In this document: piece by piece, positions 1 through 53,194 of the stretch
Numbering within the stretch: position 1 is the first letter of the stretch
Layout of the letters: every line of letters begins with the position of its first letter
Source: G963667425 sp963667425 [NCBI: bacterium]
GTDB taxonomy: Bacteria; UBP6; UBA1177
Direction: 5' to 3'
Assembly: GCA_963667425.1 (NCBI GenBank)
Contig: OY763407.1
Span: 2,790,001 to 2,854,000, forward strand
Length of the DNA stretch: 64,000 nt
Program-made: the position numbers and the translations under genes
Notes under the pieces: model-generated
What the model was told of the DNA's origin: nothing
What the model saw: the letters and a program-made list of their open reading frames with translations, nothing else
Database searches by the model: none

Positions 1-186
1 ACTTTTTTTGATATTTCAGATTTTATTGAAGGTAAAAAAGAGGCTATGTCTTTTTATAAAAATGAAATAAGAGATTTTCCACATCCTCGTTCAATAAAAG
101 GTATAGAACTTAATGCTGCATATTGGGGAATGAGGACCGGTCTTAATTATGCTGAAGCTTTTGTAACTTTAAGGAATGTTTTATGA
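1..186 (+). CDS. PIG-L (LmbE) family deacetylase, C-terminal fragment
   Basis: An open frame enters from the left edge and ends at a TGA at 184-186, leaving about 61 residues. The tail contains NEIRDFPHPRSIKGIELNA followed by an AEAF element near the end, which is typical of the C-terminus of PIG-L/LmbE N-acetyl-sugar deacetylases. The zinc-binding N-terminus lies outside the window, so catalytic residues cannot be checked. Its stop overlaps the next start as ATGA, so the two genes are translationally coupled. With the PseH-like neighbour it probably belongs to a sugar or flagellin glycosylation cluster; this is inference from context. Confidence 0.7.
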   Translation, partial: TFFDISDFIEGKKEAMSFYKNEIRDFPHPRSIKGIELNAAYWGMRTGLNYAEAFVTLRNVL

Positions 187-686
187 GAGAATTTGATTTT
201 TTTTCTTTTGAAAATATTACTTTTACAAGTTTCACGCTGCTTGATGAAAAAAAACTTTTAGAAATCTTAGACTGGCGAAATTGTGAAACAGTAAGAAAAG
301 AAATGTTTAACAGTTCTTTGATTTCTAATAAAGAACACATGGCCTTTGTGGAAAAACTAAAAAATGATATAAATAATTTTTATTGGCTTGTAGCGTTGAA
401 TGGTGATTTGGATCTCGGTGTTTTTTATCTTAATAATATAAATTTTATTAACTGTTCAGCTGAACTTGGAATTTATACTGTTCCTGATGGGAAAATTAAG
501 GGCTCAGGTTCTGTTATTATGATAAATGCTTTAATGATATATTCTTTAATGAATATTAATAAAATTTATCTTCAGGTTTTTAGCGATAATAAAAAAGCTG
601 TGAAGTTCTATCTTAAACATGGTTTTCAGGTTTTAAATGAATTTCGTGGAGAAAGAGATGTTTTAGAAATGTTTCTTGCTGTCTGA
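183..686 (+). CDS. PseH-like GNAT N-acetyltransferase
   Basis: A 167-aa GNAT-fold protein. Near residues 30-60 it has WRNCETVRKEMFNSSLIS followed by KEHMAFVEKL, the layout of PseH (UDP-4-amino-4,6-dideoxy-altrosamine N-acetyltransferase). An acetyl-CoA-binding core follows (ELGIYTVPDGKIKGSGSVIM), then the C-terminal DNKKAVKFYLKHGFQ motif seen in most GNATs. PseH acts in pseudaminic acid synthesis, which decorates flagellins in several bacteria, and three flagellin genes follow directly. The start overlaps the upstream stop (ATGA). It could instead acetylate a related nonulosonate or amino sugar; other Pse enzymes are not in the window. Confidence 0.7.
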   Translation: MREFDFFSFENITFTSFTLLDEKKLLEILDWRNCETVRKEMFNSSLISNKEHMAFVEKLKNDINNFYWLVALNGDLDLGVFYLNNINFINCSAELGIYTVPDGKIKGSGSVIMINALMIYSLMNINKIYLQVFSDNKKAVKFYLKHGFQVLNEFRGERDVLEMFLAV

Positions 687-756
687 TTATTTTGTAATAA
701 TTTCCATTGTTATTTCAGCCTGTTATTAAAAAATGATTTTTTTTGTGATTTTTTGC

Positions 757-783
757 TAAAGAGTTTTTTTTAATATCCGTAAT
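757..783 (+). promoter_or_regulatory. possible sigma-28 (FliA) type promoter for flagellin 1
   Basis: TAAAGAGT at 757-764 and TCCGTAAT at 776-783 are separated by 11 bases, the spacing of the flagellar sigma-28 consensus TAAAGTTT-N11-GCCGATAA. The -35 half matches 6 of 8 positions and the -10 half about 4 of 8, so this is suggestive only. If real, the transcript would pass through the hairpin at 839-931 before reaching the gene. Confidence 0.3.
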
Positions 784-838
784 CCTCAGTGTAAGTGGTT
801 CGTTAACTTTTATTTAGCATAAAGAATAGTCTATTCCA

Positions 839-931
839 GGGAAGGAAACAGATTAATTCCGAGAAGATGTAAATACAGTTTTTCAGCCTGTATTTTATTT
901 TTACGGAATCTGTTTTCTTCCCTTTTTTTTT
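839..931 (+). terminator. long nested hairpin with T-run upstream of flagellin 1
   Basis: GGGAAGGAAACAGATT (839-854) pairs with AATCTGTTTTCTTCCC (907-922) through 16 pairs including one G-U. A second hairpin is nested inside, AAATACAG (871-878) with CTGTATTT (888-895). A run of T follows at 923-931. An outer pairing GCATAAA (817-823) with TTTATGC (929-935) is also possible. It is most simply an intrinsic terminator for the glycosylation genes, but its length and nesting, in the 315-base gap before flagellin 1, leave room for attenuation. No gene is visible in the gap. Confidence 0.65.
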
Positions 932-966
932 ATGCTTTTTAAATATTGTTTGCAGGTTACTAAAAG

Positions 967-997
967 CAGGGATGCATTAAGAATTTTCCAAGGAGGA
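967..997 (+). promoter_or_regulatory. flagellin 1 leader: CsrA-like site plus Shine-Dalgarno
   Basis: CAGGGATG at 967-974 fits the core of the known CsrA RNA-binding consensus (CARGGAUG). It lies in a short GCA/TGC-closed hairpin (966-975). A strong ribosome site CCAAGGAGGA follows at 988-997, itself carrying GGA. The same CAGGGA...CCAAGGAGGA pair recurs before both other flagellins. A GGA hairpin upstream plus a second GGA in the SD is the arrangement by which CsrA represses flagellin mRNA in Bacillus. CsrA/FliW genes are not in the window. Confidence 0.5.
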
Positions 998-1001
998 AAA
1001 G

Positions 1002-3356
1002 ATGGCAATTTTATTACAGGACAGGTACGTAAGTGCCTCGGCAACGAACAGCCTTTCATTGGCTCAGAGTTCGATGTCAAAATCGATTCAGAGACTTAGC
1101 TCGGGTCTTAGGATTAACAGTGCTGCTGATGATCCGTCAGGCTTAGCTATTTCTGAAAGACTTAGAACACAAATTAATGGTTTTGCAAGAGCATCTCTTA
1201 ATGCTCAGGATGCAATTTCTTATTTTCAGACAGCGGAAGGTGCTCTTAATGAAACTCATTCTATTTTACAGAGAATGAGAGAGCTTTCAATTCAGGCTGC
1301 GAATGGAACTCTGACTTCATCTGACAGAAACACTATTCAAAGTGAAGTGGATCAACTTAAAGAAGAGGTTGACAGAATTGCCTATTCAACAGAATTCAAC
1401 ACAAAGAAGCTTTTAAATGGTGATGCTTCAGCTTTGTGGTCTTCTACAACTCAGGATGTTTCTGCTGTTATTAGGGGAAAAGTAAGGGAAGGAAACTATG
1501 AACTTGAAGTTGAGGCAGATCCTGGACAAAATCATGTTCTTAAAACGGATATTTTTTCTGTTAAATCAGGAGAGCAGGCTGCAGTTATTGTAAATAACAC
1601 TGAATCGGCAACCGGTATTGATGATGTAACAGGACCGAACAATCTTCTTACAACTCAGACAACAGGCAATAGTGGGACTTATGTTATTTCTTCCGTTGCT
1701 GGTGTCGCTGCCTCAAGTGCTGTAACAGATGAGCAGCTTGCAGTATATCTTAAAACTACAGCAAGTGATATTACTAAGTTTTCAAATGGAGTTGTCGATA
1801 CATCTTCAACAAATAACTATCATTCAGGTGGTACATATCTTCAGATAGAAGTTGTTAAAGGTGCAACAATGGTTGATACAACTGACGCTAATGCTGCGAC
1901 AGTAAGGTATTCTTTTAACGGTACCACATGGACTGAAATGCAAATAAATGGAAGTGCCTCGGATGTTACTCTGGCAGGTGTAGATGAAGCTGGTGAAACA
2001 TGGAGTTTTATTATCAGTGCCGGGCAGTTTGCAAGTAGCTCTCTTTATGAAGGAGAGAAAATATTAATAGGACTTAATTATCATGATAGTGCTCAGGATT
2101 CAGATACAATTCAGATAGTAGCTCCTGTATATTCAAATAATAAAGATACTTCAGCTGTAAGTCTTGTTCAGAAAACAAGAAGCTATTCATATGATGCTGG
2201 AACTGTTTCAGGTTCAACAAAGGAGCTTGATATAATTCAGCTTGATGCAAGAACAGGTGACTGGATTAATGGAAGTCTGACTATCAATTTTAGTGAAGAA
2301 TATGATTTCGCTGATTCAGATTCTTTTACTTTTAAAATTGAGGCTGGTGGTGTTGCAAACGGTAACAGTAAACTTTCAAGAATAGATCGTTTTTATGATG
2401 ATGACGGGAACTTTGTCCTTGGAGAAGATGGCGAGTATCTCACGATTTATAATTCTAATGGTGATGCTGCTAAAATTCATATAGATGGTGAAGATACTCT
2501 TGATGAGCTTGCAGAGAAAATAAATAATGCAATAAGAGATGATTTAAGTCTTAGCACAGGCGATCTTGAGATGGATAAGCACATTGCTGAATTTGTTCAG
2601 GATGCTACAGCCGGAACAGATATGGCGGTAAGAGGAACTATCGTTATTCGTTCAACAATACCTGGCGCTGAAGGCAAGCTTAGTTTTACAGGAAGTGAAG
2701 ATCTTCTGAATGCTCTTTCTCTTGTAACTATTCAGGAACCGTCAGTTAATAATCTTGATGTTATAGTCCGTGATGCTCACACAAGTGAAGTTATAGGAAG
2801 AGATAGCGTTTCTGATAATGTACTCCATAATGTTATTTCCGGAGTTGATGTTAAATTTGCTTCAACAATGGATATCGATTCTCATTGGGATAATACAAAA
2901 AAAGCATTTGTTTATGAGTCAAGTAGTGGTAAAGTAACAGAATATCTTCATGTTGTTGATAATGCCAAATCCTTTCAGGTTGGTTCTGAAGCTAATCAGA
3001 CTGTTGAAAGTTACATCGGTGAAACAGATGCAAAAGCTTTAGGAATTGACAGAGTGCTTGTAACAGATCAGTCATCTGCTCAAAGTTCTATAGGGTATAT
3101 TGATAATGCTATAGAGATAGTTACTTCAGAACGTTCAAGAATGGGAGCTGTAGTTAACAGACTTGAACATACTATAAATAGTTTGAATGTACAGCAGGAA
3201 AACGCAGTTGCTGCAGAATCAAGAATTAGAGATCTTGATATTGCAAAGGAATCGACAGAGCTTGCAAAAGCACAGCTTATAAGTCAGGCGGCAACGGCTA
3301 TGCTTGCACAGGCTAACCAGATGGGTTCAGGGCTTATTTCCCTTCTTAGAAGTTAG
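1002..3356 (+). CDS. flagellin 1 (long, 784 aa)
   Basis: Structural subunit of the flagellar filament. Residues about 1-145 form the conserved D0/D1 N-terminus, with LSSGLRINSAADDPSGLAIS near residue 31 and RMRELSIQAANGTL near 88. The last roughly 95 residues form the conserved C-terminal helix, with NRLEHTINSLNVQQENAVAA and SQAATAMLAQANQM. Between them lies an insert of about 540 residues, so the protein is far longer than common 270-500 aa flagellins and should expose large outer domains. The start is set by AGGAGG six bases upstream. It resembles flagellins 2 and 3 throughout but differs in many codons, so it is an older paralogue. The upstream PseH-like gene suggests glycosylation. Confidence 0.95.
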   Translation: MAILLQDRYVSASATNSLSLAQSSMSKSIQRLSSGLRINSAADDPSGLAISERLRTQINGFARASLNAQDAISYFQTAEGALNETHSILQRMRELSIQAANGTLTSSDRNTIQSEVDQLKEEVDRIAYSTEFNTKKLLNGDASALWSSTTQDVSAVIRGKVREGNYELEVEADPGQNHVLKTDIFSVKSGEQAAVIVNNTESATGIDDVTGPNNLLTTQTTGNSGTYVISSVAGVAASSAVTDEQLAVYLKTTASDITKFSNGVVDTSSTNNYHSGGTYLQIEVVKGATMVDTTDANAATVRYSFNGTTWTEMQINGSASDVTLAGVDEAGETWSFIISAGQFASSSLYEGEKILIGLNYHDSAQDSDTIQIVAPVYSNNKDTSAVSLVQKTRSYSYDAGTVSGSTKELDIIQLDARTGDWINGSLTINFSEEYDFADSDSFTFKIEAGGVANGNSKLSRIDRFYDDDGNFVLGEDGEYLTIYNSNGDAAKIHIDGEDTLDELAEKINNAIRDDLSLSTGDLEMDKHIAEFVQDATAGTDMAVRGTIVIRSTIPGAEGKLSFTGSEDLLNALSLVTIQEPSVNNLDVIVRDAHTSEVIGRDSVSDNVLHNVISGVDVKFASTMDIDSHWDNTKKAFVYESSSGKVTEYLHVVDNAKSFQVGSEANQTVESYIGETDAKALGIDRVLVTDQSSAQSSIGYIDNAIEIVTSERSRMGAVVNRLEHTINSLNVQQENAVAAESRIRDLDIAKESTELAKAQLISQAATAMLAQANQMGSGLISLLRS

Positions 3357-3725
3357 CTTGAAGAATTACAGAGATAGCTGGAGGGTAGTCTCTGATAATT
3401 TAACTGTTCATTGAAAATATGTTTAAAGCAGAAGAAATTGTTTTGAGTTTTGTTCAGGGAGTGGAGGACCTGAACATTTATAAGACTTAAAATAATCTCT
3501 TTCAATAAGCAGTTTCTAATAATTAATAGATTCATGTTATGTATAAATAGAATTTTATTAATTTAAGAATTTATCATAGCGGTACCGGAAGGTGCCGCTA
3601 TGGCATAGGAGGAAAAGGAAAAGATATAAAAAGAAATTGTTTATTTCTTACCGGAATAAGCAGGTTTCCGGTGGAGTGGTTATCCGGAATTTAACCAGGG
3701 AAAACAAAATCCAAGGAGGAATGTT
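3357..3725 (+). promoter_or_regulatory. flagellin 2 leader: 369-base non-coding region rich in GGA hairpins
   Basis: No credible gene. Five hairpins can be drawn: CAGAGA/TCTCTG (3370-3375/3390-3395, loop with GGAGGG); TGTTCAGG/CCTGAACA (3451-3458/3469-3476, loop GAGTGGAGGA); a 12-pair stem 3575-3586/3591-3602 closing a GGAA loop; ACCGGAA/TTCCGGT (3650-3656/3666-3672); and TGGTTA/TAACCA (3677-3682/3692-3697) with loop TCCGGAATT. CAGGGA (3696-3701) and the SD CCAAGGAGGA (3711-3720) follow. GGA occurs about 14 times. Such GGA-in-loop density is typical of CsrA/RsmA-bound RNAs. It may be a regulated 5' leader or a separate small RNA. No consensus promoter was recognised. Confidence 0.5.
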
Positions 3726-6080
3726 ATGTCTATGGGTATTTACAACAATTCAACGGCGCTTAGTGCCAGAAACAGTTTGAATATTGCATCTGGCGGTATG
3801 TCAAAGGCTATTCAACAGCTTAGCTCAGGCTTAAGGATAAACAGCGCAGCTGATGATCCGTCAGGTCTAGCTATTTCAGAAAGACTCAGAACACAGATCA
3901 ATGGTCTTGCAAGAGCATCACTCAATGCACAGGATGGTATATCCTATGTGCAGACAGCAGAGGGAGCACTTAACGAAACACATTCGATCCTTCAGAGAAT
4001 GAGAGAGCTTGCAGTACAGGGTGCAAACGGAACACTTACATCGACAGACAGGAAGACGATACAGGAGGAAATCAACCAGCTTGTAGATGAAGTAGACCGT
4101 ATATCGACCTCAACCGAGTTCAACACGAAGAAACTTCTTAACGGAGATGCATCAGCACTGTGGTCATCATCATCAGATGCAGTGAATGCAGTAATAACAG
4201 GAAAAGTACGTGAAGGTAACTATGAGCTTGAAATCAATGTAACACCGACGGAAGCTCATGTTCTGAAGAGCGATATTTTTTCAGTTAAAGATGGACTTCA
4301 GGCAGCGGTTATAACAAAAAACACTGAATCATCAACAGGTATCAATGATGTAACGATTCCAACGAATCTTCTTACAAATCAGACCAGTGTTAATTCAGGG
4401 AACTATGTTATATCAGCTCAGGCTGCTACAGCAGCGAGCGGAGCTGTTGCAGAAGAACAGCTTGCTGTTTATTATAAAACAACAGCGAGTAGCATAACGA
4501 TGTTTAAAACAGCAGGAACTGTGCAGACAGCAGCAGCAGCCAACTATCATTCAGGTGGTACCTATCTTCAGATAGAAGTAACTAAAGGTGCAACAATGGT
4601 TGATACTGCGGAAGAGAACCTTGTTAAGATCAGATATTCATTCAATGGTAAAACATGGAGTGAAGGGACGATTAAGGGAGATACCGCAGGAACAATAAGT
4701 TTCTCAGGAGAAGATGCAAATGGAGATACCTGGAAATATAAAATATCCGGTGATTTTTCAGGTAAGTCTATGTACGAAGGAGAAAAGATTCTTATAGGAC
4801 TTAACTTCCATGACAGTGCCAAAAAATCTGATCATATTCAGATAGCTGCACCAGTATACTCAAACAACAAGAAAACAGCATCAGCCGATCTGATTCAGTT
4901 GTCAAGGGATTATTCTTTTGATGCAGGAACACTTTCCGGAGCCAGCAAAGATCTTGATATAATTCAGCTTGATGCAAGGACCGGAGACTGGGTGAATGGA
5001 AGTCTTACAGTTAACTTCAGTGAAGAATTCGACTTTGCTACATCGAGTACATTTGCGTTTGAGATAAAGGAAGGCGGAGTTGCAAACGGAAGTACTAAAT
5101 TATCGAGAGTAGACAGGTTCTATGACGATGACGGTAACTTTGTACTTGGCAGTGAAGGTAAGGAGTTCACTATTTATAGCGGAAGCGGAAAATCTGTAAA
5201 TATATTTATAGATGGTGAAGATACTCTTGATGAACTTGCTGACAAGATAAACAATGCTATCAGAGATGATCTCGGACTTGGAACAGGGGATCTTGAAGCA
5301 GATTCTCATTATGCTTCCTTTGTACAGGATGCGACAGCCGGAACAGATGAGGCAGTAAAAGGTACAATAGTAATCCGTTCGCCGCTCATGGGAGCTGATG
5401 GGAAACTATCATTTTCGGGAGATGAAGATCTTATCAATGCCCTTTCACTTGTAACAATAAATGAACCAACACCGACACAGATGGATGTTGTAGTTCGTGA
5501 TGCTCATACAAGTGAGCTTATAGGCAGAGATACAATATCAAGCGGATCTCTTGTGAACGTTATTGACGGAGTAAGAGTAGATCTTTCTCCAACTCTTGAT
5601 ACCAAAGTTTCCTGGGATAATACAAGTAAATCGCTTAAGTTTGAATCAGAGTCTGGAGTAGTTAAGGAATATCTTCATGTTGTTGATAATGGCAATACTC
5701 TTCATATAGGTGCAGGTCAGAATCAGACACTTGATAACTATATTGGAGATATGGGATCAACAGCGCTCAGGATCAATTCACTTCTTGTAACGAGTCAGGA
5801 AAGTGCAGAAAACGCTATAGGAACGATTGATAACGCAATAGATATGGTGAGCACAGAGCGTTCAAGGATCGGAGCTGTAGTAAACAGACTTGAACATACT
5901 ATAAATAACCTGAATGTACAGCAGGAAAACGCAGTTGCGGCAGAGTCCAGAATCAGGGATCTTGATATGGCTCAGGCTGCTACAGATCTTGCCAAATGGC
6001 AGGTACTGAGTCAGGCTGCGACAAGTATGCTTGCTCAGGCTAACCAGATGGGTCAGAATATTCTTACCTTGTTGAGATAG
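3726..6080 (+). CDS. flagellin 2 (long, 784 aa)
   Basis: Filament subunit with the same plan as flagellin 1: N-terminal D0/D1 with LSSGLRINSAADDPSGLAIS, a central insert of about 540 residues, and a C-terminal D1/D0 ending in SQAATSMLAQANQMGQNILT. I chose ATG 3726 (MSMGIYNN), six bases after AGGAGG; ATG 3732 would match the start of flagellin 3 but is 12 bases away. Bases 3912-5144 appear identical to 6815-8047 in flagellin 3, while the 5' 190 bases and the 3' third differ at many sites. The pattern points to recent duplication or gene conversion. Confidence 0.95.
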   Translation: MSMGIYNNSTALSARNSLNIASGGMSKAIQQLSSGLRINSAADDPSGLAISERLRTQINGLARASLNAQDGISYVQTAEGALNETHSILQRMRELAVQGANGTLTSTDRKTIQEEINQLVDEVDRISTSTEFNTKKLLNGDASALWSSSSDAVNAVITGKVREGNYELEINVTPTEAHVLKSDIFSVKDGLQAAVITKNTESSTGINDVTIPTNLLTNQTSVNSGNYVISAQAATAASGAVAEEQLAVYYKTTASSITMFKTAGTVQTAAAANYHSGGTYLQIEVTKGATMVDTAEENLVKIRYSFNGKTWSEGTIKGDTAGTISFSGEDANGDTWKYKISGDFSGKSMYEGEKILIGLNFHDSAKKSDHIQIAAPVYSNNKKTASADLIQLSRDYSFDAGTLSGASKDLDIIQLDARTGDWVNGSLTVNFSEEFDFATSSTFAFEIKEGGVANGSTKLSRVDRFYDDDGNFVLGSEGKEFTIYSGSGKSVNIFIDGEDTLDELADKINNAIRDDLGLGTGDLEADSHYASFVQDATAGTDEAVKGTIVIRSPLMGADGKLSFSGDEDLINALSLVTINEPTPTQMDVVVRDAHTSELIGRDTISSGSLVNVIDGVRVDLSPTLDTKVSWDNTSKSLKFESESGVVKEYLHVVDNGNTLHIGAGQNQTLDNYIGDMGSTALRINSLLVTSQESAENAIGTIDNAIDMVSTERSRIGAVVNRLEHTINNLNVQQENAVAAESRIRDLDMAQAATDLAKWQVLSQAATSMLAQANQMGQNILTLLR
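3912..5144 (+). repeat. direct repeat, copy A (middle of flagellin 2)
   Basis: About 1233 bases in which I found no difference from 6815-8047 (offset 2903) by eye. It begins just after the A-to-D codon difference near residue 63 and ends at the CTT/ATT difference in the codon beginning at 5145. It covers part of the conserved N-terminal domain and most of the variable insert. Confidence 0.85.
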
Positions 6081-6090
6081 AATATGTTTT

Positions 6091-6117
6091 TGCGGGAAGA
6101 TAATGTTTCTTCCCGCA
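6091..6117 (+). terminator. perfect hairpin after flagellin 2
   Basis: TGCGGGAAGA (6091-6100) and TCTTCCCGCA (6108-6117) form a perfect 10-pair stem with a 7-base loop, 10 bases after the flagellin 2 stop. Only a weak T-rich tail follows (TGGTTCTTTG), so it may be a partial terminator or an mRNA 3'-end stabiliser rather than a full stop. Confidence 0.5.
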
Positions 6118-6634
6118 TGGTTCTTTGAAAATTGAGCAAAAGACTAACGAAAGGCCTTGTACATTTTTGGATAATTTATTTCTCTTTATAAAAAGATCAT
6201 TTTGACTGATATATTTTTATCTCTTTTCCGTTGTAAACTGACTTTTTGGCAGACCTTATTAAAGTAATATCTGCAAAATCTTGGGGAGACTGTCCGAAAA
6301 CAGGATAGTATTGATTTACCCCTTTTTTGCCTGTCTGCAGGTTGTTTGGAGAGTTCTTCATTACACCTGTAATCGGACAGGTTCCTTAGATATAACAAAA
6401 AGAAAGTCTAGCATAAAAAATTATTGTTGGTGGAGAAGAAGAGTAATCAAAGTTGATATCTGGGCCCGATATCAATGGAGAAAAAACTCCTTCTTTTACA
6501 TTGCTGTAATTAGAGAGGAGGTGATTGGATAATCGGTTTAAAGTAAAAATGACCTTTCAGAGTGAAGGTTAGCTCTGACGGCTTGGTCCACCGGAATGTG
6601 ACCAGGGAAATAATTTTAATCCAAGGAGGACGTT
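6118..6634 (+). promoter_or_regulatory. flagellin 3 leader: structured non-coding region
   Basis: No convincing gene. Seen here: ACTGTCC/GGATAGT hairpin (6289-6295/6303-6309) whose left arm could alternatively pair with CGGACAG at 6374-6380; an inverted repeat TTGATATC (6453-6460) and GATATCAA (6468-6475) around TGGGCCC; a near-perfect SD sequence AGGAGGTGAT at 6516-6525 with no matching gene; and the conserved flagellin element with TGGTCCAC/GTGACCA (6584-6591/6598-6604, one bulged C, loop CGGAAT), CAGGGA (6603-6608) and CCAAGGAGGA (6621-6630). CCCGATAT at 6465-6472 resembles a sigma-28 -10 box, with CAAAGTTG at 6448-6455 at a spacing two bases short; weak. Confidence 0.45.
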
Positions 6635-8983
6635 ATGGGAATTTATAGCAATTCAACGGCACTTAATGCCAGAAACAGTTTGAATATCGCATCTAGTGGT
6701 ATGGCAAAATCAATTTCAAGACTTAGCTCAGGCTTAAGGATAAACAGCGCAGCTGATGATCCGTCAGGTCTAGCTATTTCAGAAAGACTCAGAACACAGA
6801 TTAATGGTCTTGACAGAGCATCACTCAATGCACAGGATGGTATATCCTATGTGCAGACAGCAGAGGGAGCACTTAACGAAACACATTCGATCCTTCAGAG
6901 AATGAGAGAGCTTGCAGTACAGGGTGCAAACGGAACACTTACATCGACAGACAGGAAGACGATACAGGAGGAAATCAACCAGCTTGTAGATGAAGTAGAC
7001 CGTATATCGACCTCAACCGAGTTCAACACGAAGAAACTTCTTAACGGAGATGCATCAGCACTGTGGTCATCATCATCAGATGCAGTGAATGCAGTAATAA
7101 CAGGAAAAGTACGTGAAGGTAACTATGAGCTTGAAATCAATGTAACACCGACGGAAGCTCATGTTCTGAAGAGCGATATTTTTTCAGTTAAAGATGGACT
7201 TCAGGCAGCGGTTATAACAAAAAACACTGAATCATCAACAGGTATCAATGATGTAACGATTCCAACGAATCTTCTTACAAATCAGACCAGTGTTAATTCA
7301 GGGAACTATGTTATATCAGCTCAGGCTGCTACAGCAGCGAGCGGAGCTGTTGCAGAAGAACAGCTTGCTGTTTATTATAAAACAACAGCGAGTAGCATAA
7401 CGATGTTTAAAACAGCAGGAACTGTGCAGACAGCAGCAGCAGCCAACTATCATTCAGGTGGTACCTATCTTCAGATAGAAGTAACTAAAGGTGCAACAAT
7501 GGTTGATACTGCGGAAGAGAACCTTGTTAAGATCAGATATTCATTCAATGGTAAAACATGGAGTGAAGGGACGATTAAGGGAGATACCGCAGGAACAATA
7601 AGTTTCTCAGGAGAAGATGCAAATGGAGATACCTGGAAATATAAAATATCCGGTGATTTTTCAGGTAAGTCTATGTACGAAGGAGAAAAGATTCTTATAG
7701 GACTTAACTTCCATGACAGTGCCAAAAAATCTGATCATATTCAGATAGCTGCACCAGTATACTCAAACAACAAGAAAACAGCATCAGCCGATCTGATTCA
7801 GTTGTCAAGGGATTATTCTTTTGATGCAGGAACACTTTCCGGAGCCAGCAAAGATCTTGATATAATTCAGCTTGATGCAAGGACCGGAGACTGGGTGAAT
7901 GGAAGTCTTACAGTTAACTTCAGTGAAGAATTCGACTTTGCTACATCGAGTACATTTGCGTTTGAGATAAAGGAAGGCGGAGTTGCAAACGGAAGTACTA
8001 AATTATCGAGAGTAGACAGGTTCTATGACGATGACGGTAACTTTGTAATTGGCAGTGAAGGTAAGGAGTTCACTATTTATAGCGGAAGCGGAAAATCTGC
8101 AACCATATTTATAGATGGTGAAGATACTCTTGATGAATTTGCTGACAAGATAAACAATGCTATCAGAGATAGCCTCGGACTTGGAACTGGTGATCTTGAA
8201 TCTGGAAAGCATTATGCAGACTTTGTACAGGATGCGACAGCCGGAACAGATGAGGCAGTAAAAGGTACAATAGTAATCCGTTCACCGCTCATGGGTGAAG
8301 ATGGTAAACTTTCCTTCTCAGGAGATGAAGACCTTATCAATGCTCTTTCACTTGTAACGATCAATGAGCCTACACCGACACAGATGGATGTTGTAGTTCG
8401 TGATGCTCATACAAGTGAGCTTATAGGCAGAGATACAGTATCAAGCGGATCTCTTGTGAATGTAATTGACGGAGTAAGAGTTGACCTTTCTTCTTCTCTT
8501 GATACCAAAGTTTCCTGGGATGATACAACCAAGTCGCTTAAGTTCGAATCAGAGTCTGGAGTAGTTAAGGAATATCTCCATGTTGTTGATAATGGTAACA
8601 AACTTCATATTGGAGCTAACCAGAATCAGACACTTGATAACTATATTGGAGATATGGGATCAACAGCGCTCAGGATCAATTCACTTCTTGTAACGAGTCA
8701 GGAAAGTGCAGAAAACGCTATAGGAACGATTGATAACGCAATAGATATGGTAAGTAGTGAGCGTTCAAGAATCGGAGCTGTAGTAAACAGACTTGAACAT
8801 ACTATAAATAACCTGAATGTACAGCAGGAAAACGCAGTTGCGGCAGAATCCAGAATCAGGGATCTTGATATGGCAAAAGAGGCTACAGAGCTTGCCAAAT
8901 GGCAGGTACTGAGCCAGGCAGCAACAAGCATGCTTGCACAGGCTAATTCAATGAATCAGAATTATCTGAGTCTTATCCGTTAG
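6635..8983 (+). CDS. flagellin 3 (long, 782 aa)
   Basis: Filament subunit with the same architecture as flagellins 1 and 2. It starts MGIYSNSTALNARNSL, five bases after AGGAGG, and ends SMLAQANSMNQNYLSLIR. The central part is nucleotide-identical to flagellin 2 (6815-8047). The ends differ, notably residues about 1-60 and several patches after residue 470, for example LESGKHYADF against LEADSHYASF. A strong terminator follows at 8998-9025, closing the flagellin block. Having two near-identical plus one divergent filament gene suggests either high dosage or a reservoir for recombination. Confidence 0.95.
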   Translation: MGIYSNSTALNARNSLNIASSGMAKSISRLSSGLRINSAADDPSGLAISERLRTQINGLDRASLNAQDGISYVQTAEGALNETHSILQRMRELAVQGANGTLTSTDRKTIQEEINQLVDEVDRISTSTEFNTKKLLNGDASALWSSSSDAVNAVITGKVREGNYELEINVTPTEAHVLKSDIFSVKDGLQAAVITKNTESSTGINDVTIPTNLLTNQTSVNSGNYVISAQAATAASGAVAEEQLAVYYKTTASSITMFKTAGTVQTAAAANYHSGGTYLQIEVTKGATMVDTAEENLVKIRYSFNGKTWSEGTIKGDTAGTISFSGEDANGDTWKYKISGDFSGKSMYEGEKILIGLNFHDSAKKSDHIQIAAPVYSNNKKTASADLIQLSRDYSFDAGTLSGASKDLDIIQLDARTGDWVNGSLTVNFSEEFDFATSSTFAFEIKEGGVANGSTKLSRVDRFYDDDGNFVIGSEGKEFTIYSGSGKSATIFIDGEDTLDEFADKINNAIRDSLGLGTGDLESGKHYADFVQDATAGTDEAVKGTIVIRSPLMGEDGKLSFSGDEDLINALSLVTINEPTPTQMDVVVRDAHTSELIGRDTVSSGSLVNVIDGVRVDLSSSLDTKVSWDDTTKSLKFESESGVVKEYLHVVDNGNKLHIGANQNQTLDNYIGDMGSTALRINSLLVTSQESAENAIGTIDNAIDMVSSERSRIGAVVNRLEHTINNLNVQQENAVAAESRIRDLDMAKEATELAKWQVLSQAATSMLAQANSMNQNYLSLIR
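6815..8047 (+). repeat. direct repeat, copy B (middle of flagellin 3)
   Basis: Partner of 3912-5144. By eye no difference was found over about 1233 bases, while both flanks within the genes carry many synonymous and non-synonymous changes. Confidence 0.85.
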
Positions 8984-8997
8984 TCTTTTGTATCATT

Positions 8998-9025
8998 AAA
9001 GAGGGGCGTTTGCCCCTCTTTTTTT
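8998..9025 (+). terminator. intrinsic terminator after flagellin 3
   Basis: AAAGAGGGGC (8998-9007) pairs with GCCCCTCTTT (9012-9021) around a four-base loop, followed by an unbroken T-run to 9025. It lies 15 bases after the flagellin 3 stop. Confidence 0.92.
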
Positions 9026-9149
9026 GTATAGTGTCTGTAAAATTTTTGTAATAGTTTTAATTTTTGCGTTTAAATAAGATTGCAATTTATTTTTTTATAA
9101 CTAAAATGACACTGATAAGTGCTGTAAACATTTTATTATTGGAGGTTCT

Positions 9150-9932
9150 ATGAACTTTTTAAAATTAAGTTTAGCTTTCTTATTTTTTTTCGTTATAGCT
9201 TTTACAGGCTGTGATTCTTCAGACCCTATTCCTGAATATCCTGATGAAGATATTGTTGATGAAGTAGATGAACAACCGGATCCAGATGTTATAATACCGG
9301 ATCCAGATGTTGTAACACCGGATCCAGATGAACAACCTGATCCGGATGTTTCTGAACCAACTGACTGTGTTGAGGATTCTGATTGTGGAGCAGGTAAAAT
9401 TTGTGTTCCTGAAAGTGCAGGTTCAACGTATGGAACATGTGTTGATGGTTGTTCAAGTAACGATGAATGTGGCTCAGGTTCATGTAATCTTAATCTTAGA
9501 AGATGTGTTAATTTAACTGGTGATTCAGGGGAATGCAGTGCTTCAAACTGTTCTGAAGGATGCTGTGTTGCTGGCGATGGTTTAAGATCTCTTACCTGTG
9601 CACCTGTTGAAGATTCAAGATGTTCAGCCTGTGGTCCATGTGCTCAGGGAACTGTCTGCATGGTAAGTACTTCAACATGTGTTGCCGCTGAGTGTTCAAG
9701 TGCTGATCAGTGTGCTACTCTTAATTCACATATAACAGATGTTTCTGAATGGGAATGTTCAGAAGGCATATGTGCTATGTCGGGAAGTTCAACGCCTGAT
9801 GCTGATTCCGGCGGTGCTTGTGTGTCTGAGATGGGTTCCTGTACACAAAATTCAGATTGTTGTGATGGGCTCACTTGTCAAGGTATGCCTCCTATTATGG
9901 GCTTTTGTATGGGAGCTACAGCTGTTCAATAA
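9150..9932 (+). CDS. cysteine-rich secreted lipoprotein, copy 1
   Basis: A 260-aa protein with a type II signal peptide (lipobox FTGC, lipid cysteine near residue 20). An acidic PDPDV-type repeat linker follows at residues about 25-68, then a domain with 28 more cysteines. The cysteine pattern includes SEGCC and a C-terminal knottin-like run (CxxxxxC...CCxxxxC...C). The EDSDCGAGKICVPE-type motif is common in secreted proteins of deltaproteobacteria-like lineages. The start is set by GGAGG eight bases upstream. The next gene encodes a sister protein with the same 29 cysteines. No catalytic motif is visible; a surface-anchored, disulfide-rich role is likely but its ligand is unknown. Confidence 0.85.
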   Translation: MNFLKLSLAFLFFFVIAFTGCDSSDPIPEYPDEDIVDEVDEQPDPDVIIPDPDVVTPDPDEQPDPDVSEPTDCVEDSDCGAGKICVPESAGSTYGTCVDGCSSNDECGSGSCNLNLRRCVNLTGDSGECSASNCSEGCCVAGDGLRSLTCAPVEDSRCSACGPCAQGTVCMVSTSTCVAAECSSADQCATLNSHITDVSEWECSEGICAMSGSSTPDADSGGACVSEMGSCTQNSDCCDGLTCQGMPPIMGFCMGATAVQ

Positions 9933-9955
9933 CTAAAAAATATGTTTTTGTAATA

Positions 9956-9983
9956 AAGGGGCTCATAAAATGAGCCTCTTTTT
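9956..9983 (+). terminator. intrinsic terminator between the two cysteine-rich lipoprotein genes
   Basis: AAGGGGCTCA (9956-9965) pairs with TGAGCCTCTT (9971-9980, one G-U), loop TAAAA, with T-run to 9983. It ends 16 bases before the next start codon, so it also sits in the leader of the second gene and argues against any start further upstream at 9970. Confidence 0.8.
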
Positions 9984-9999
9984 GTTGCTTGGAGGTAAA

Positions 10000-10728
10000 A
10001 TGAAAATATTTCTAACAATAATTGTTGTTTTTATTCTGTTTTCTTTTGCTGGGTGTTCTGATAATGGCTCTGAAGATGATGTTGATAATAATCCTCCGGA
10101 TTTTGGTAACGAAACGGATGACAGCAGTTTTGTTCCTGATGATGTATCTGAAGAGTTCTGCACAAAAGATAAAGATTGCGGGAAAGGAAAAATTTGTCTT
10201 CCTGAAACGGAAAATGCAACTTATGGAAGTTGTATAGAAGGTTGTAGTGAAGATTCAGACTGTTCAATAGGATCATGTAATGTGTCTCTTGGAAGATGTA
10301 TAAATGGTCAGTTGAAATCTGAAGAGAATACTGTTTGCGGAAGTGAAAATTGTTCAAAAGGATGCTGTCTTGCGGCAACTGGACTTACCGGTGTAGTATG
10401 TGACACGGAATTTTCCCACTGTTTTGACTGTTCAATGTGTCGCCAGGGTTATATCTGCATGCCTTCTGCCAGAGAATGTGTTACTGCTGAATGTAACTCA
10501 GATGAAGAGTGTGAGGAAATTAATTCTGAAACAGTTCTTTCAGGGGACTATATGTGGAGATGCCAGGAAGGAATATGTAAACGTATCTATTCCGGTGAAG
10601 AACCTCCTGAAGGTTGTGCGGAAGTTGGAGCTCCTTGCGGAATGCTTGCCGATGTGGCAACTGGAAGCAGTAACGAATGCTGTCCTGGTACAGATTGCAC
10701 TGATTATCTTATAGGTATTTGTCAGTAA
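10000..10728 (+). CDS. cysteine-rich secreted lipoprotein, copy 2
   Basis: A 242-aa paralogue of the preceding lipoprotein. It has a signal peptide with lipobox FAGC, a shorter acidic linker (DDVDNN, DDSSFVPDD), then the same series of cysteines: 29 in all, with motifs KDCGKGKICLPE, SKGCCLA and NECCPGTDC aligning one-for-one with copy 1. I chose ATG 10000 because GGAGG lies just upstream (9991-9995); an earlier in-frame ATG at 9970 falls inside the terminator hairpin. Tandem duplication followed by sequence divergence, with all cysteines kept, indicates selection on the disulfide framework. Confidence 0.87.
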   Translation: MKIFLTIIVVFILFSFAGCSDNGSEDDVDNNPPDFGNETDDSSFVPDDVSEEFCTKDKDCGKGKICLPETENATYGSCIEGCSEDSDCSIGSCNVSLGRCINGQLKSEENTVCGSENCSKGCCLAATGLTGVVCDTEFSHCFDCSMCRQGYICMPSARECVTAECNSDEECEEINSETVLSGDYMWRCQEGICKRIYSGEEPPEGCAEVGAPCGMLADVATGSSNECCPGTDCTDYLIGICQ

Positions 10729-51229: not shown

Positions 51230-53194
51230 TTATTTTGCGCAGCGGAATCCTAATCCTGCATAAACAACATCCGGTGATGCAAAAACTCTTTTTGAAACAC
51301 GCATCTGATAGAGATATTCTGCCAAAGTTCCAAATGATTCTCCACGTATTACACGATCTGTTCCACTTGCTGCGCCTTGAGGGTCGGTTGCAGGTAATAC
51401 GGAATAATAATCTTTATCGTACCAGTCATTTACCCATTCCTGCACGTTTCCGGTCATATCATAAACGCCGTAGGGGCTCATGTCTTTAGCTCTGCTTCCT
51501 ATTTCCCATGCTACGTTTCCTGCGCCGCAGCTCATCCTCATATCGTCAAAACTTGTTCCTTCAGACATTATTGTATATTCACATGTTGCTGTTTCATTAC
51601 CCCATGGGTATATTCTTTCGTCTGTTCCTCGTGCGGCTTTTTCCCATTCGGCTTCGGTCGGGAGTCTTTTGCCTGCCCATTCGCAGTATGCTTTTGCTCC
51701 GTACCAGCTTACGTTGTTCATCGGATGGCTTTCTTTGCCTGGTTGAACGGCATTGCTTCCATCAACATAGAGTTGGTTTAACGAATTTTCGTTGCTGCAT
51801 GAACCGGAATCTATACATGCCTTGTATGCTGCGGCTGTTACTTCGTATTTATCTATTTTGTATTCCGATAGTGTTACCTGATGGTATGGTTTTTCACCTT
51901 CACCGCATTCGTTTGCATTATCAACAAACTGATTGCAGCCCATCATGAACGGTCCTGCCGGTATTGTAACCATTTCTTCTATGCAGTCGCCCTGATTTTC
52001 CCAGAGTTTTTGTGCATTGCATATCTGTTTTTGGAATAGTGTGCCGTCTGTCTGACATGCGACTGTTTTTATTTCTCCTTCTTTGCAGGTATATCTGCAT
52101 GATGTTGTTGAACTTTCTGTATTGTACTCGGGAGTGGTTTCAATTGGTACCCATTTTGTTCCGTCAAAGGTCTGTGTGTATTCGGAAACGGTGTTCCAGA
52201 CTGTTTTTTCGGGTTTATCGGGGCATGTATAAACCTGTGTGCAGCTGTTTTCGATTACCCATTCGTCACATGTGCTGCTGCATGGCGCTTCTCCGCCATA
52301 CTGGTTTCCAAGATATAAAGAACATGCTTTTGTATTGCTGTCACATAGTTCGACTCCTTCGTTTACGTATCCGTCACCGCAGATATTTAGTTTGCAGCTG
52401 TTTAAGCAGCTGTCTTCGTTTATTACGTTTCCGTCGTCACACTCTTCAAAGCCTTCGTTTTTGTATCCGTCTCCGCAGATGTTTGCTTTGCAGTCGTTTA
52501 AACAGCTGTCTTCGTTTGAAAGGTTGGCGTCATCGCATTCTTCTCCGCTGTCTAAATGTCCGTTTCCGCATAGCTGGCAGACTGTTTCATCGTTCCAGCC
52601 TGTACACATCTCATTGCAAACAGCTGTTGTTCCTGTTATGTAGTTTTTACCGGGTATCATCGAGCAGTCTATGGCGCTTCCTGTTTCACATGTTTCTCCG
52701 GTGTCTAATATTCTGTTTCCGCATGTTTCACAGAGGCTGTTTTTCCAGCCTGAGCAGTCGTCGTTGCAGATTGTGTACTTTCCCTGGGGATATGTTTCTC
52801 CTTCGATGGCAGAGCATTCTATAGTTTCCCCAAGTTCGCATATTTCACCTTCATCTTTTATGCTGTTGCCGCATTTTGTAACAAAAATGTCTGCATCTTC
52901 GTCAGATGTTTCTACATCTTCGTCTGTTTCGGTGTCGGGCGCTGTTATATCTTCATCAGATTCATTATCAGGAACTGTATCTTCGTCTGTTTCGGTGTCG
53001 GGTACGGTTATATCTTCATCATTTTCACTGTCAACGACTGCATCTTCATCTGTTTCGGTGTCTGTAGTTGCTGTATCTTCGTCAATCGCCGGAATTGTGT
53101 CATTATCTGTCTGCTCCGGTTTTGTTGTTTTACCGTCATCACAGCTGACTGTAATAAAAAGCAGCAATACAACAAGTAATAAAATTTTTCTCAT
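51230..53194 (-). CDS. lipoprotein with DUF4215-type cysteine repeats and FGE/SUMF1 domain
   Basis: 654 aa. Signal peptide with lipobox FITVSC; acidic linker of TDTETDED units (residues about 25-100); cysteine-rich modules at about 105-330, including CGNGHLDSGEECDDANLSNE and CGDGYKNEGFEECDDGN, the Myxococcus-type cysteine repeat; then an FGE-sulfatase/SUMF1 domain from about 410 ([73 protein letters not shown]). Similar domains in secreted proteins often act as binding modules rather than formylglycine-generating enzymes. The substrate is unknown. It is the intact paralogue of 49886-51058. Confidence 0.9.
   Translation of the reverse strand: MRKILLLVVLLLFITVSCDDGKTTKPEQTDNDTIPAIDEDTATTDTETDEDAVVDSENDEDITVPDTETDEDTVPDNESDEDITAPDTETDEDVETSDEDADIFVTKCGNSIKDEGEICELGETIECSAIEGETYPQGKYTICNDDCSGWKNSLCETCGNRILDTGETCETGSAIDCSMIPGKNYITGTTAVCNEMCTGWNDETVCQLCGNGHLDSGEECDDANLSNEDSCLNDCKANICGDGYKNEGFEECDDGNVINEDSCLNSCKLNICGDGYVNEGVELCDSNTKACSLYLGNQYGGEAPCSSTCDEWVIENSCTQVYTCPDKPEKTVWNTVSEYTQTFDGTKWVPIETTPEYNTESSTTSCRYTCKEGEIKTVACQTDGTLFQKQICNAQKLWENQGDCIEEMVTIPAGPFMMGCNQFVDNANECGEGEKPYHQVTLSEYKIDKYEVTAAAYKACIDSGSCSNENSLNQLYVDGSNAVQPGKESHPMNNVSWYGAKAYCEWAGKRLPTEAEWEKAARGTDERIYPWGNETATCEYTIMSEGTSFDDMRMSCGAGNVAWEIGSRAKDMSPYGVYDMTGNVQEWVNDWYDKDYYSVLPATDPQGAASGTDRVIRGESFGTLAEYLYQMRVSKRVFASPDVVYAGLGFRCAK

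What the first reader, a model, noticed from the sequence alone, without database searches (positions are those of the whole stretch)
967..6630. Shared CsrA-like leader element before all three flagellins
CAGGGA is followed 15 to 18 bases later by CCAAGGAGGA in front of each flagellin (967/988, 3696/3711, 6603/6621). Before flagellins 2 and 3 the CAGGGA completes a hairpin with a CCGGAAT-type loop, and the stems differ by compensating changes (TGGTTA/TAACCA against TGGTC-CAC/GTGACCA), which suggests selection on the RNA fold. In flagellin 1 the site CAGGGATG fits the CsrA consensus. CsrA repression of flagellin through paired GGA sites is known in Bacillus and Campylobacter.
Basis: partly seen in the sequence, partly recalled or inferred. 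Interest (0 to 1): 0.68.

Follow-up and report, generated by a model that had tools for sequence, protein, structure and literature searches.

The report
CsrA-type switch in flagellin leaders
The start regions of three flagellin messages carry paired RNA-protein binding sites, one over the ribosome-binding site, of the sort that lets bacteria hold back flagellin production until it is needed; the same element turns up in a distant bacterial phylum.

Summary
The motifs are where stated: CAGGGA at 967, 3696, 6603 and CCAAGGAGGA at 988, 3711, 6621, before three flagellin genes. On the window alone the case is modest: the folds are no more stable than shuffles, and only one stem pair shows a clean double change between leaders 2 and 3. 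Comparison makes it strong. Flagellins similar over their whole length (about 40% identity) occur in Synergistota. Their leaders often carry a covarying hairpin with GGA in the loop plus a Shine-Dalgarno written ACA(A/G)GGAGGU, close to the published CsrA SELEX consensus. A covariance model from 21 such leaders gives four matches in the 64 kb, all before flagellins (leader 1 E 0.0024; leaders 2 and 3 weak, resting mainly on the Shine-Dalgarno). csrA and fliW track flagellin there: each in 97 of 107 flagellin-positive genomes, against 3 and 2 of 42 without. In local folds the window's Shine-Dalgarno forms UCC-AAGGA-GGA in all three leaders, resembling the SL1/SL2 plan of Campylobacter flaA. I conclude: a CsrA translation operator of the known hag/flaA kind in an unplaced lineage. 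Whether this organism has csrA or fliW could not be tested. The Synergistota element was not seen in the papers searched.

The parts
957..999 (+). Flagellin 1 leader: CsrA-type two-site element (SL1 + SL2)
   Evidence: Best match in the 64 kb to the covariance model built from Synergistota flagellin leaders, 19.7 bits, E 0.0024
966..975 (+). Flagellin 1 SL1: GCA-GGGA-UGC (or GC-AGGGAU-GC), ANGGA core in the loop; CAGGGAUGC agrees with 8 of 9 positions of CARGGAUGU in the SELEX consensus
   Evidence: Sequence; forms in the folds of 957-1003 and 687-1010 but not in that of 940-1010; consensus RUACARGGAUGU from PMC7652899
984..1000 (+). Flagellin 1 SL2: UUUUCC-AAGGA-GGAAAA, Shine-Dalgarno inside the hairpin with AAGGA as the loop
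1002..3356 (+). Flagellin 1 (784 aa)
   Evidence: Pfam Flagellin_N and Flagellin_C
3677..3701 (+). Flagellin 2 SL1: TGGTTA-TCCGGAATT-TAACCA followed at once by GGGA (CAGGGA 3696-3701)
3710..3720 (+). Flagellin 2 SL2: UCC-AAGGA-GGA over the Shine-Dalgarno
   Evidence: local fold, not in the whole-intergenic fold; covariance-model match 3688-3722, 11.6 bits, E 0.3
3726..6080 (+). Flagellin 2 (784 aa)
6582..6608 (+). Flagellin 3 SL1: CTTGGTCCA-CCGGAA-TG-T-GACCAGG (6582-6606), overlapping CAGGGA 6603-6608
6620..6630 (+). Flagellin 3 SL2: UCC-AAGGA-GGA over the Shine-Dalgarno
   Evidence: local fold, not in the whole-intergenic fold; covariance-model match 6593-6632, 9.1 bits, E 1.4
6635..8983 (+). 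Flagellin 3 (782 aa)
834..847 (+). Possible additional CsrA-type site TTCC-AGGGAA-GGAA upstream of flagellin 1, overlapping the 5' arm of a terminator-like hairpin
   Evidence: covariance-model match 827-869, 10.4 bits, E 0.61; GGA-hairpin scan
838..931 (+). Long hairpin (838-923, 35 pairs) running into nine T (923-931), between pseH and flagellin 1: terminator or attenuator
   Evidence: MFE -39.5, z -7.69 for 828-940

Best explanation
Each flagellin leader is a translational operator for the RNA-binding protein CsrA. One half of a CsrA dimer holds an upstream GGA (SL1: AGGGAU loop in flagellin 1; the hairpin-loop GGA and/or the adjoining AGGGA in flagellins 2 and 3). The other half bridges 16-32 nt downstream to AAGGA in SL2, which is the Shine-Dalgarno, and blocks the ribosome. 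By analogy with Bacillus and Campylobacter, FliW would free the operator when flagellin is being exported. Shown: the motifs; a predicted SD mini-hairpin in local folds of all three leaders; covariation and a CsrA-consensus SD in Synergistota flagellin leaders; co-occurrence of csrA and fliW there. Inferred: that this organism has csrA and fliW, that CsrA binds, and that the effect is repression.
For: Synergistota leaders: 47 of 95 have a GGA-loop hairpin at score 12 or more, against a mean of 5.2 (max 13) in 200 shuffles and 5 of 73 control ORFs; the excess holds at all five cut-offs tried, 8 to 16; GGA is the commonest of 64 trinucleotides in such loops (47 of 93 leaders holding it, next AGG 30 of 76). 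GGA chosen without regard to structure: flanks pair in 57.5% of cells against 40.8% with partners shuffled (max 47.8%) and 37.6-44.1% slid. 21-leader alignment: 95% of cells paired, 27 double-changed cells (0 of 500 shuffles reach this), slid controls 30-55% (rows were selected for having a hairpin, so helix 1 is biased; helix 2 was not selected and is 100% paired with 4 double-changed cells). SD preceded by ACA in 54 of 81 against 4 of 49 controls. Model R1 on the window: four matches up to E 10 with default filters, all upstream of flagellins. On 51 held-out loci all 25 matches at E 0.06 or less end 5-11 bases before a flagellin start, 25 of 59 starts. csrA in 97 of 107 (96 over the family cut-off) and fliW in 97 of 107 flagellin-positive genomes, against 3 and 2 of 42 negative ones. 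SELEX consensus, SL1/SL2 plan and 10-63 nt bridging range from PMC7652899 and PMC4894983 (passages).
Against: No genome held for the window, so csrA and fliW are untested; none found inside the window with 7 CsrA and 6 FliW queries. Leaders 2 and 3 match the model weakly (E 0.3 and 1.4): in leader 3 all four SL1 pairs are non-standard in that alignment, in leader 2 SL1 is mostly skipped, and the outer SL2 pair of the model is broken in all three leaders, whose SL2 uses another register. Their SL1 loop is CCGGAA, lacking the A two bases before GGA, and their AGGGA is not in a loop. SL2 of leaders 2 and 3 is absent from the whole-intergenic folds and SL1 of leader 1 from one of three folds. Fold energies of the local leader regions do not clearly beat shuffles (z -0.22 to -1.65). 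Obg at 41-49% identity (main matches) suggests that the window is not Synergistota, so the comparison is probably between phyla. 48 of 95 Synergistota leaders have no strict hairpin at score 12 or more. On A1 the number of pairs with a change on both sides is no higher than in shuffles (4 against 3.4).
Confidence: 0.77

Rival explanations
1. The shared sequence is just a strong Shine-Dalgarno plus leftovers of gene duplication; the hairpins have no regulator.
For: Flagellins 2 and 3 are paralogues with about 1 kb of identical coding sequence; local folds are at shuffle level; CCAAGGAGG is a good SD, and the model matches of leaders 2 and 3 rest mainly on it.
Against: Only the hairpin-SD block is alignable in otherwise unlike intergenic regions; flagellin 1 shares CAGGGA and CCAAGGAGGA although its coding DNA is only 69% identical to flagellin 2; Synergistota leaders show the covarying GGA hairpin and ACA-SD, both rare at control ORFs.
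Confidence: 0.14
2. The hairpins serve RNA stability or ribosome standby, or bind another GGA-recognising protein or an antisense RNA.
For: Hairpins near the 5' end often stabilise abundant mRNAs (general knowledge); no csrA seen for this organism.
Against: Loop identity is specific (GGA commonest of 64; A at -2 in 51 of 93), and the SD flanks match the CsrA consensus, which stability alone would not require; csrA tracks flagellin.
Confidence: 0.09

Closest known systems
Campylobacter jejuni flaA leader (CsrA-FliW), PMC4894983 (passages seen)
   Same: Two stem-loops with ANGGA in the loops, the second over the ribosome-binding site; compensatory changes reported among Campylobacter species
   Different: Window: three tandem flagellins of 782-784 aa with separate leaders; in leaders 2 and 3 the SL1 loop is CCGGAA and the ANGGA lies at the stem's 3' foot; csrA and fliW unknown
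Bacillus subtilis hag leader (CsrA-FliW), as summarised in PMC7652899 (passages seen)
   Same: Two sites, one overlapping the SD; in many Synergistota genomes fliW and csrA lie close to a flagellin, as I recall for B. subtilis
   Different: Different lineage and flagellin; in the window pseH, not csrA, lies directly upstream in the sequence held
Escherichia coli glgC leader (CsrA), PMC7652899 (passages seen)
   Same: Hairpin-loop site tethers CsrA and a second site covers the SD
   Different: Target is glycogen metabolism; the antagonists there are the CsrB/C RNAs rather than FliW

Membership tests
CsrA operator of flagellin leaders (hag/flaA type) | ANGGA site overlapping the Shine-Dalgarno | tested here: met
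   AAGGA within CCAAGGAGGA at 988, 3711 and 6621
CsrA operator of flagellin leaders (hag/flaA type) | Second GGA site upstream within 10-63 nt | tested here: met
   GGA-to-GGA 22, 16 and 19 nt for CAGGGA; 29 and 32 nt for the loop GGA of leaders 2 and 3 (coordinates; range from PMC7652899)
CsrA operator of flagellin leaders (hag/flaA type) | GGA displayed in hairpin loops | tested here: inconclusive
   Local folds: SL2 loop AAGGA in all three, SL1 loop GGGA in leader 1, CCGGAA in 3, TCCGGAATT in 2; energies not above shuffles, and SL2 of leaders 2 and 3 absent from the long folds
CsrA operator of flagellin leaders (hag/flaA type) | Stem conserved by compensatory changes | tested here: inconclusive
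   In the window one clean double change; met in Synergistota leaders
CsrA operator of flagellin leaders (hag/flaA type) | csrA in the genome | not testable with these tools
   No genome held; none in the 64 kb; present in 97 of 107 flagellin-positive Synergistota genomes
CsrA operator of flagellin leaders (hag/flaA type) | fliW in the genome | not testable with these tools
   As above; 97 of 107
CsrA operator of flagellin leaders (hag/flaA type) | CsrA binds the leader and represses translation | not testable with these tools
   Needs the bench
Any Rfam family | Match at gathering score | tested here: not met
   None in the window; in 1-9200 the best sub-threshold scores are far below the cut-offs

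The most novel reading that the evidence does not exclude
Flagellin 1 may carry a two-tier CsrA switch: a further CsrA-type site at 834-847 overlaps the 5' arm of a strong terminator-like hairpin (838-923 plus T run), so CsrA could decide between termination and read-through of the leader as well as translation, giving the first flagellin a control not seen before flagellins 2 and 3.
Probability: 0.1. Interest if true: 0.65.

Novelty: new member of a known kind. Interest (0 to 1): 0.43.

Why it matters
It extends CsrA control of flagellin translation, known from Bacillus and Campylobacter, to an unplaced lineage and, by sequence evidence, to many flagellate Synergistota, and offers a searchable RNA model. 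Flagellin-leader sites kept in lineages this far apart would argue that the CsrA-FliW-flagellin loop is an old core part of flagellum assembly, which these leaders make directly testable.

Tried and rejected
Own-genome searches for csrA and fliW: no genome held. Close relatives: 41 stretches matched a pattern in genome contigs and one encoded a relative, a Synergistaceae MAG; none in viral contigs. CsrA 'sponge' idea (many GGA hairpins in the long leaders): not above shuffles in the regions before flagellins 2 and 3. Sigma-28 promoter scan: two moderate candidates before flagellin 3 (15.3 and 15.2) but several higher scores elsewhere, best before flagellin 1 13.2 and before flagellin 2 9.5, so no promoter is claimed; sigma-70 matches are at shuffle level. 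Rfam: nothing. Papers on CsrA with Synergistetes or Synergistota: 4 and 1 listed, none on this topic by title; PMC9029176 checked by passages, not relevant. Other listings. The library holds open-licence papers only.
Full report
OBSERVATION. CAGGGA stands at 967, 3696 and 6603; CCAAGGAGG stands at 988, 3711 and 6621 and nowhere else on either strand of the 64 kb. Each pair precedes a flagellin ORF: 1002-3356, 3726-6080 and 6635-8983, with Pfam Flagellin_N and Flagellin_C. Start-to-start distances are 21, 15 and 18; from GGA to GGA they are 22, 16 and 19. Between leaders 2 and 3 the block 3684-3720 / 6591-6630 is the only local similarity found in otherwise unlike intergenic regions at the cut-off used. 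Within it the stem shows one clean compensatory pair (T-A to C-G) and a shift of register. Against this, the local folds are no more stable than shuffles (z -0.50 and -0.22), and GGA-loop hairpins are not enriched over these two intergenic regions (P 0.24 and 0.70; 0.048 before flagellin 1). From the window alone the case would be suggestive only.

WHAT ELSE IS IN THE LEADERS. In local folds of 47-96 bases the Shine-Dalgarno of all three leaders lies in a small hairpin, UCC-AAGGA-GGA, six pairs long in flagellin 1 and three in the others, with the CsrA core AAGGA as loop. In folds of the whole intergenic regions it forms in leader 1 but not in 2 and 3. In flagellin 1 the CAGGGA can be the loop of a mini-hairpin, GCA-GGGA-UGC; this appears in two of three folds (957-1003; 687-1010) and not in that of 940-1010. 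CAGGGAUGC agrees with 8 of 9 positions of CARGGAUGU in the SELEX consensus RUACARGGAUGU (PMC7652899, passages). In flagellins 2 and 3 the hairpin loops are TCCGGAATT and CCGGAA, and AGGGA lies at the 3' foot of the stem; these hairpins form in both the short and the long folds.

RELATIVES. One genome-collection scan gave one relative, a Synergistaceae MAG. In 149 genomes of its phylum 107 have a flagellin match, the best over the whole length at about 40% identity. The window is probably not from that phylum: its Obg is 41-49% identical to theirs in the main matches. I fetched flagellin upstream regions from these genomes and reduced them to 97 distinct leaders, 95 with an SD.

TEST OF THE HAIRPIN. 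47 of 95 leaders have an uninterrupted GGA-loop hairpin scoring 12 or more within 60 nt upstream of the SD. Shuffles of the same leaders give 5.2 on average and at most 13 in 200 rounds, and control ORFs in the same loci 5 of 73; the excess holds at all five cut-offs printed (8 to 16). Among all 64 trinucleotides GGA is the commonest in such loops (47 of 93 leaders that hold it; next AGG 30 of 76, ACG 23 of 65, GAT 23 of 53). Taking simply the GGA nearest the SD, without looking at structure, in 93 of 97 leaders the flanks pair in 57.5% of cells at the hexaloop register, against 40.8% with partners shuffled and 37.6-44.1% with the partner slid; A is favoured two bases before GGA (51 of 93), with C and G as closing bases (45 and 51 of 93). 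In a 21-leader alignment 95% of cells pair with 27 double-changed cells (shuffles 7.7), and slides give 30-55%; the number of pairs with any double change, 4 of 6, is not above shuffles (3.4). Those rows were picked for having a hairpin, so helix 1 is biased; helix 2, the SD mini-hairpin, was not selected and is 100% paired with four double-changed cells.

TEST OF THE SD. 54 of 81 flagellin SDs of the form (A/G)GGAGG are preceded by ACA, against 4 of 49 control ORFs. ACAAGGAGGU is close to the CsrA consensus. In the window the equivalent flank is UCC, pairing with GGA in another register.

TRANSFER TO THE WINDOW. A covariance model from the 21 leaders was run over the 64 kb. Four matches up to E 10 came back with default filters: 957-999 (19.7 bits, E 0.0024), 3688-3722 (11.6, E 0.3), 827-869 (10.4, E 0.61) and 6593-6632 (9.1, E 1.4). 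Three are the flagellin leaders and the fourth lies further up before flagellin 1. The alignments of leaders 2 and 3 rest mainly on the SD: SL1 is mostly skipped in leader 2 and its four pairs are non-standard in leader 3, and the outer SL2 pair of the model is broken in all three. A search of 1-9200 with filters off gave the same top four and six weaker ones at 6.9 bits or less, in coding sequence or on the other strand. On 51 held-out Synergistota loci all 25 matches at E 0.06 or less end 5-11 bases before a flagellin start, 25 of 59 starts; of all 40 matches up to E 1, 30 do so, 2 more overlap a start, and 8 lie elsewhere.

PARTNERS. csrA is found in 97 of 107 flagellin-positive genomes (96 over the family cut-off) and 3 of 42 flagellin-negative ones, two of these three being weak or partial; fliW in 97 of 107 and 2 of 42 (Fisher P 6e-23 and 2e-24, not corrected for kinship; completeness of these genomes is not told). 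In at least 29 genomes csrA lies on one contig with a flagellin match, at most 4.4 kb away (coordinates), for example G088 with fliW at 159826, csrA at 160257 and flagellin at 160756. For the window's own organism this cannot be tested, and no csrA or fliW was found in the 64 kb; the sequence begins only 1 kb before flagellin 1, with a pseH gene between (PseH model 116.4 bits, cut-off 93.1).

MECHANISM. Most likely a CsrA dimer binds SL1 and bridges to SL2 over the SD, blocking ribosomes, with FliW relieving the block, as in B. subtilis hag and C. jejuni flaA (PMC7652899 and PMC4894983, passages). In C. jejuni the 45-nt leader has two stem-loops with ANGGA in both loops, the second over the ribosome-binding site: the plan proposed here. 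The steps of binding, repression and FliW relief are inferred.

NOVELTY. The system is of a known kind. The host lineage and the Synergistota element were not seen in the listings of the searches made, in a library that holds open-licence papers only. The boldest open reading is a CsrA-controlled terminator ahead of flagellin 1 (827-931).

Noticed in passing
3406-3418 and 6120-6132: GTTCNTTGAAAAT occurs only twice in the 64 kb on both strands, each about 40-50 bases after a flagellin stop codon and shortly after a predicted hairpin; it resembles the boxA antitermination element of ribosomal RNA operons (resemblance recalled, not tested).
   Followed up: partly
838-931: A very stable predicted hairpin of 35 pairs (region z -7.7) running into nine T between pseH and flagellin 1: terminator of the pse genes or attenuator of flagellin 1.
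   Followed up: partly
3574-3603: A 13-pair uninterrupted hairpin (wobble pairs included) with a GGAA tetraloop in the middle of the flagellin 1-2 intergenic region (z -5.7), without a T run after it.
   Followed up: no
3726-6080 and 6635-8983: Flagellins 2 and 3 are identical in DNA over about 1 kb of their middle while ends and leaders differ, which suggests gene conversion.
   Followed up: partly
9150-10728: Two acidic, cysteine-containing lipoprotein-like ORFs after the flagellins; the first has a weak C-terminal knottin-like Pfam match (Toxin_12, E 3.5e-4).
   Followed up: no
51230-53194: Lipoprotein-like ORF with TIGR02232 cysteine-rich acidic repeats and a C-terminal region resembling EgtB and GldK models below their cut-offs, one of several similar acidic ORFs in the window.
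   Followed up: no
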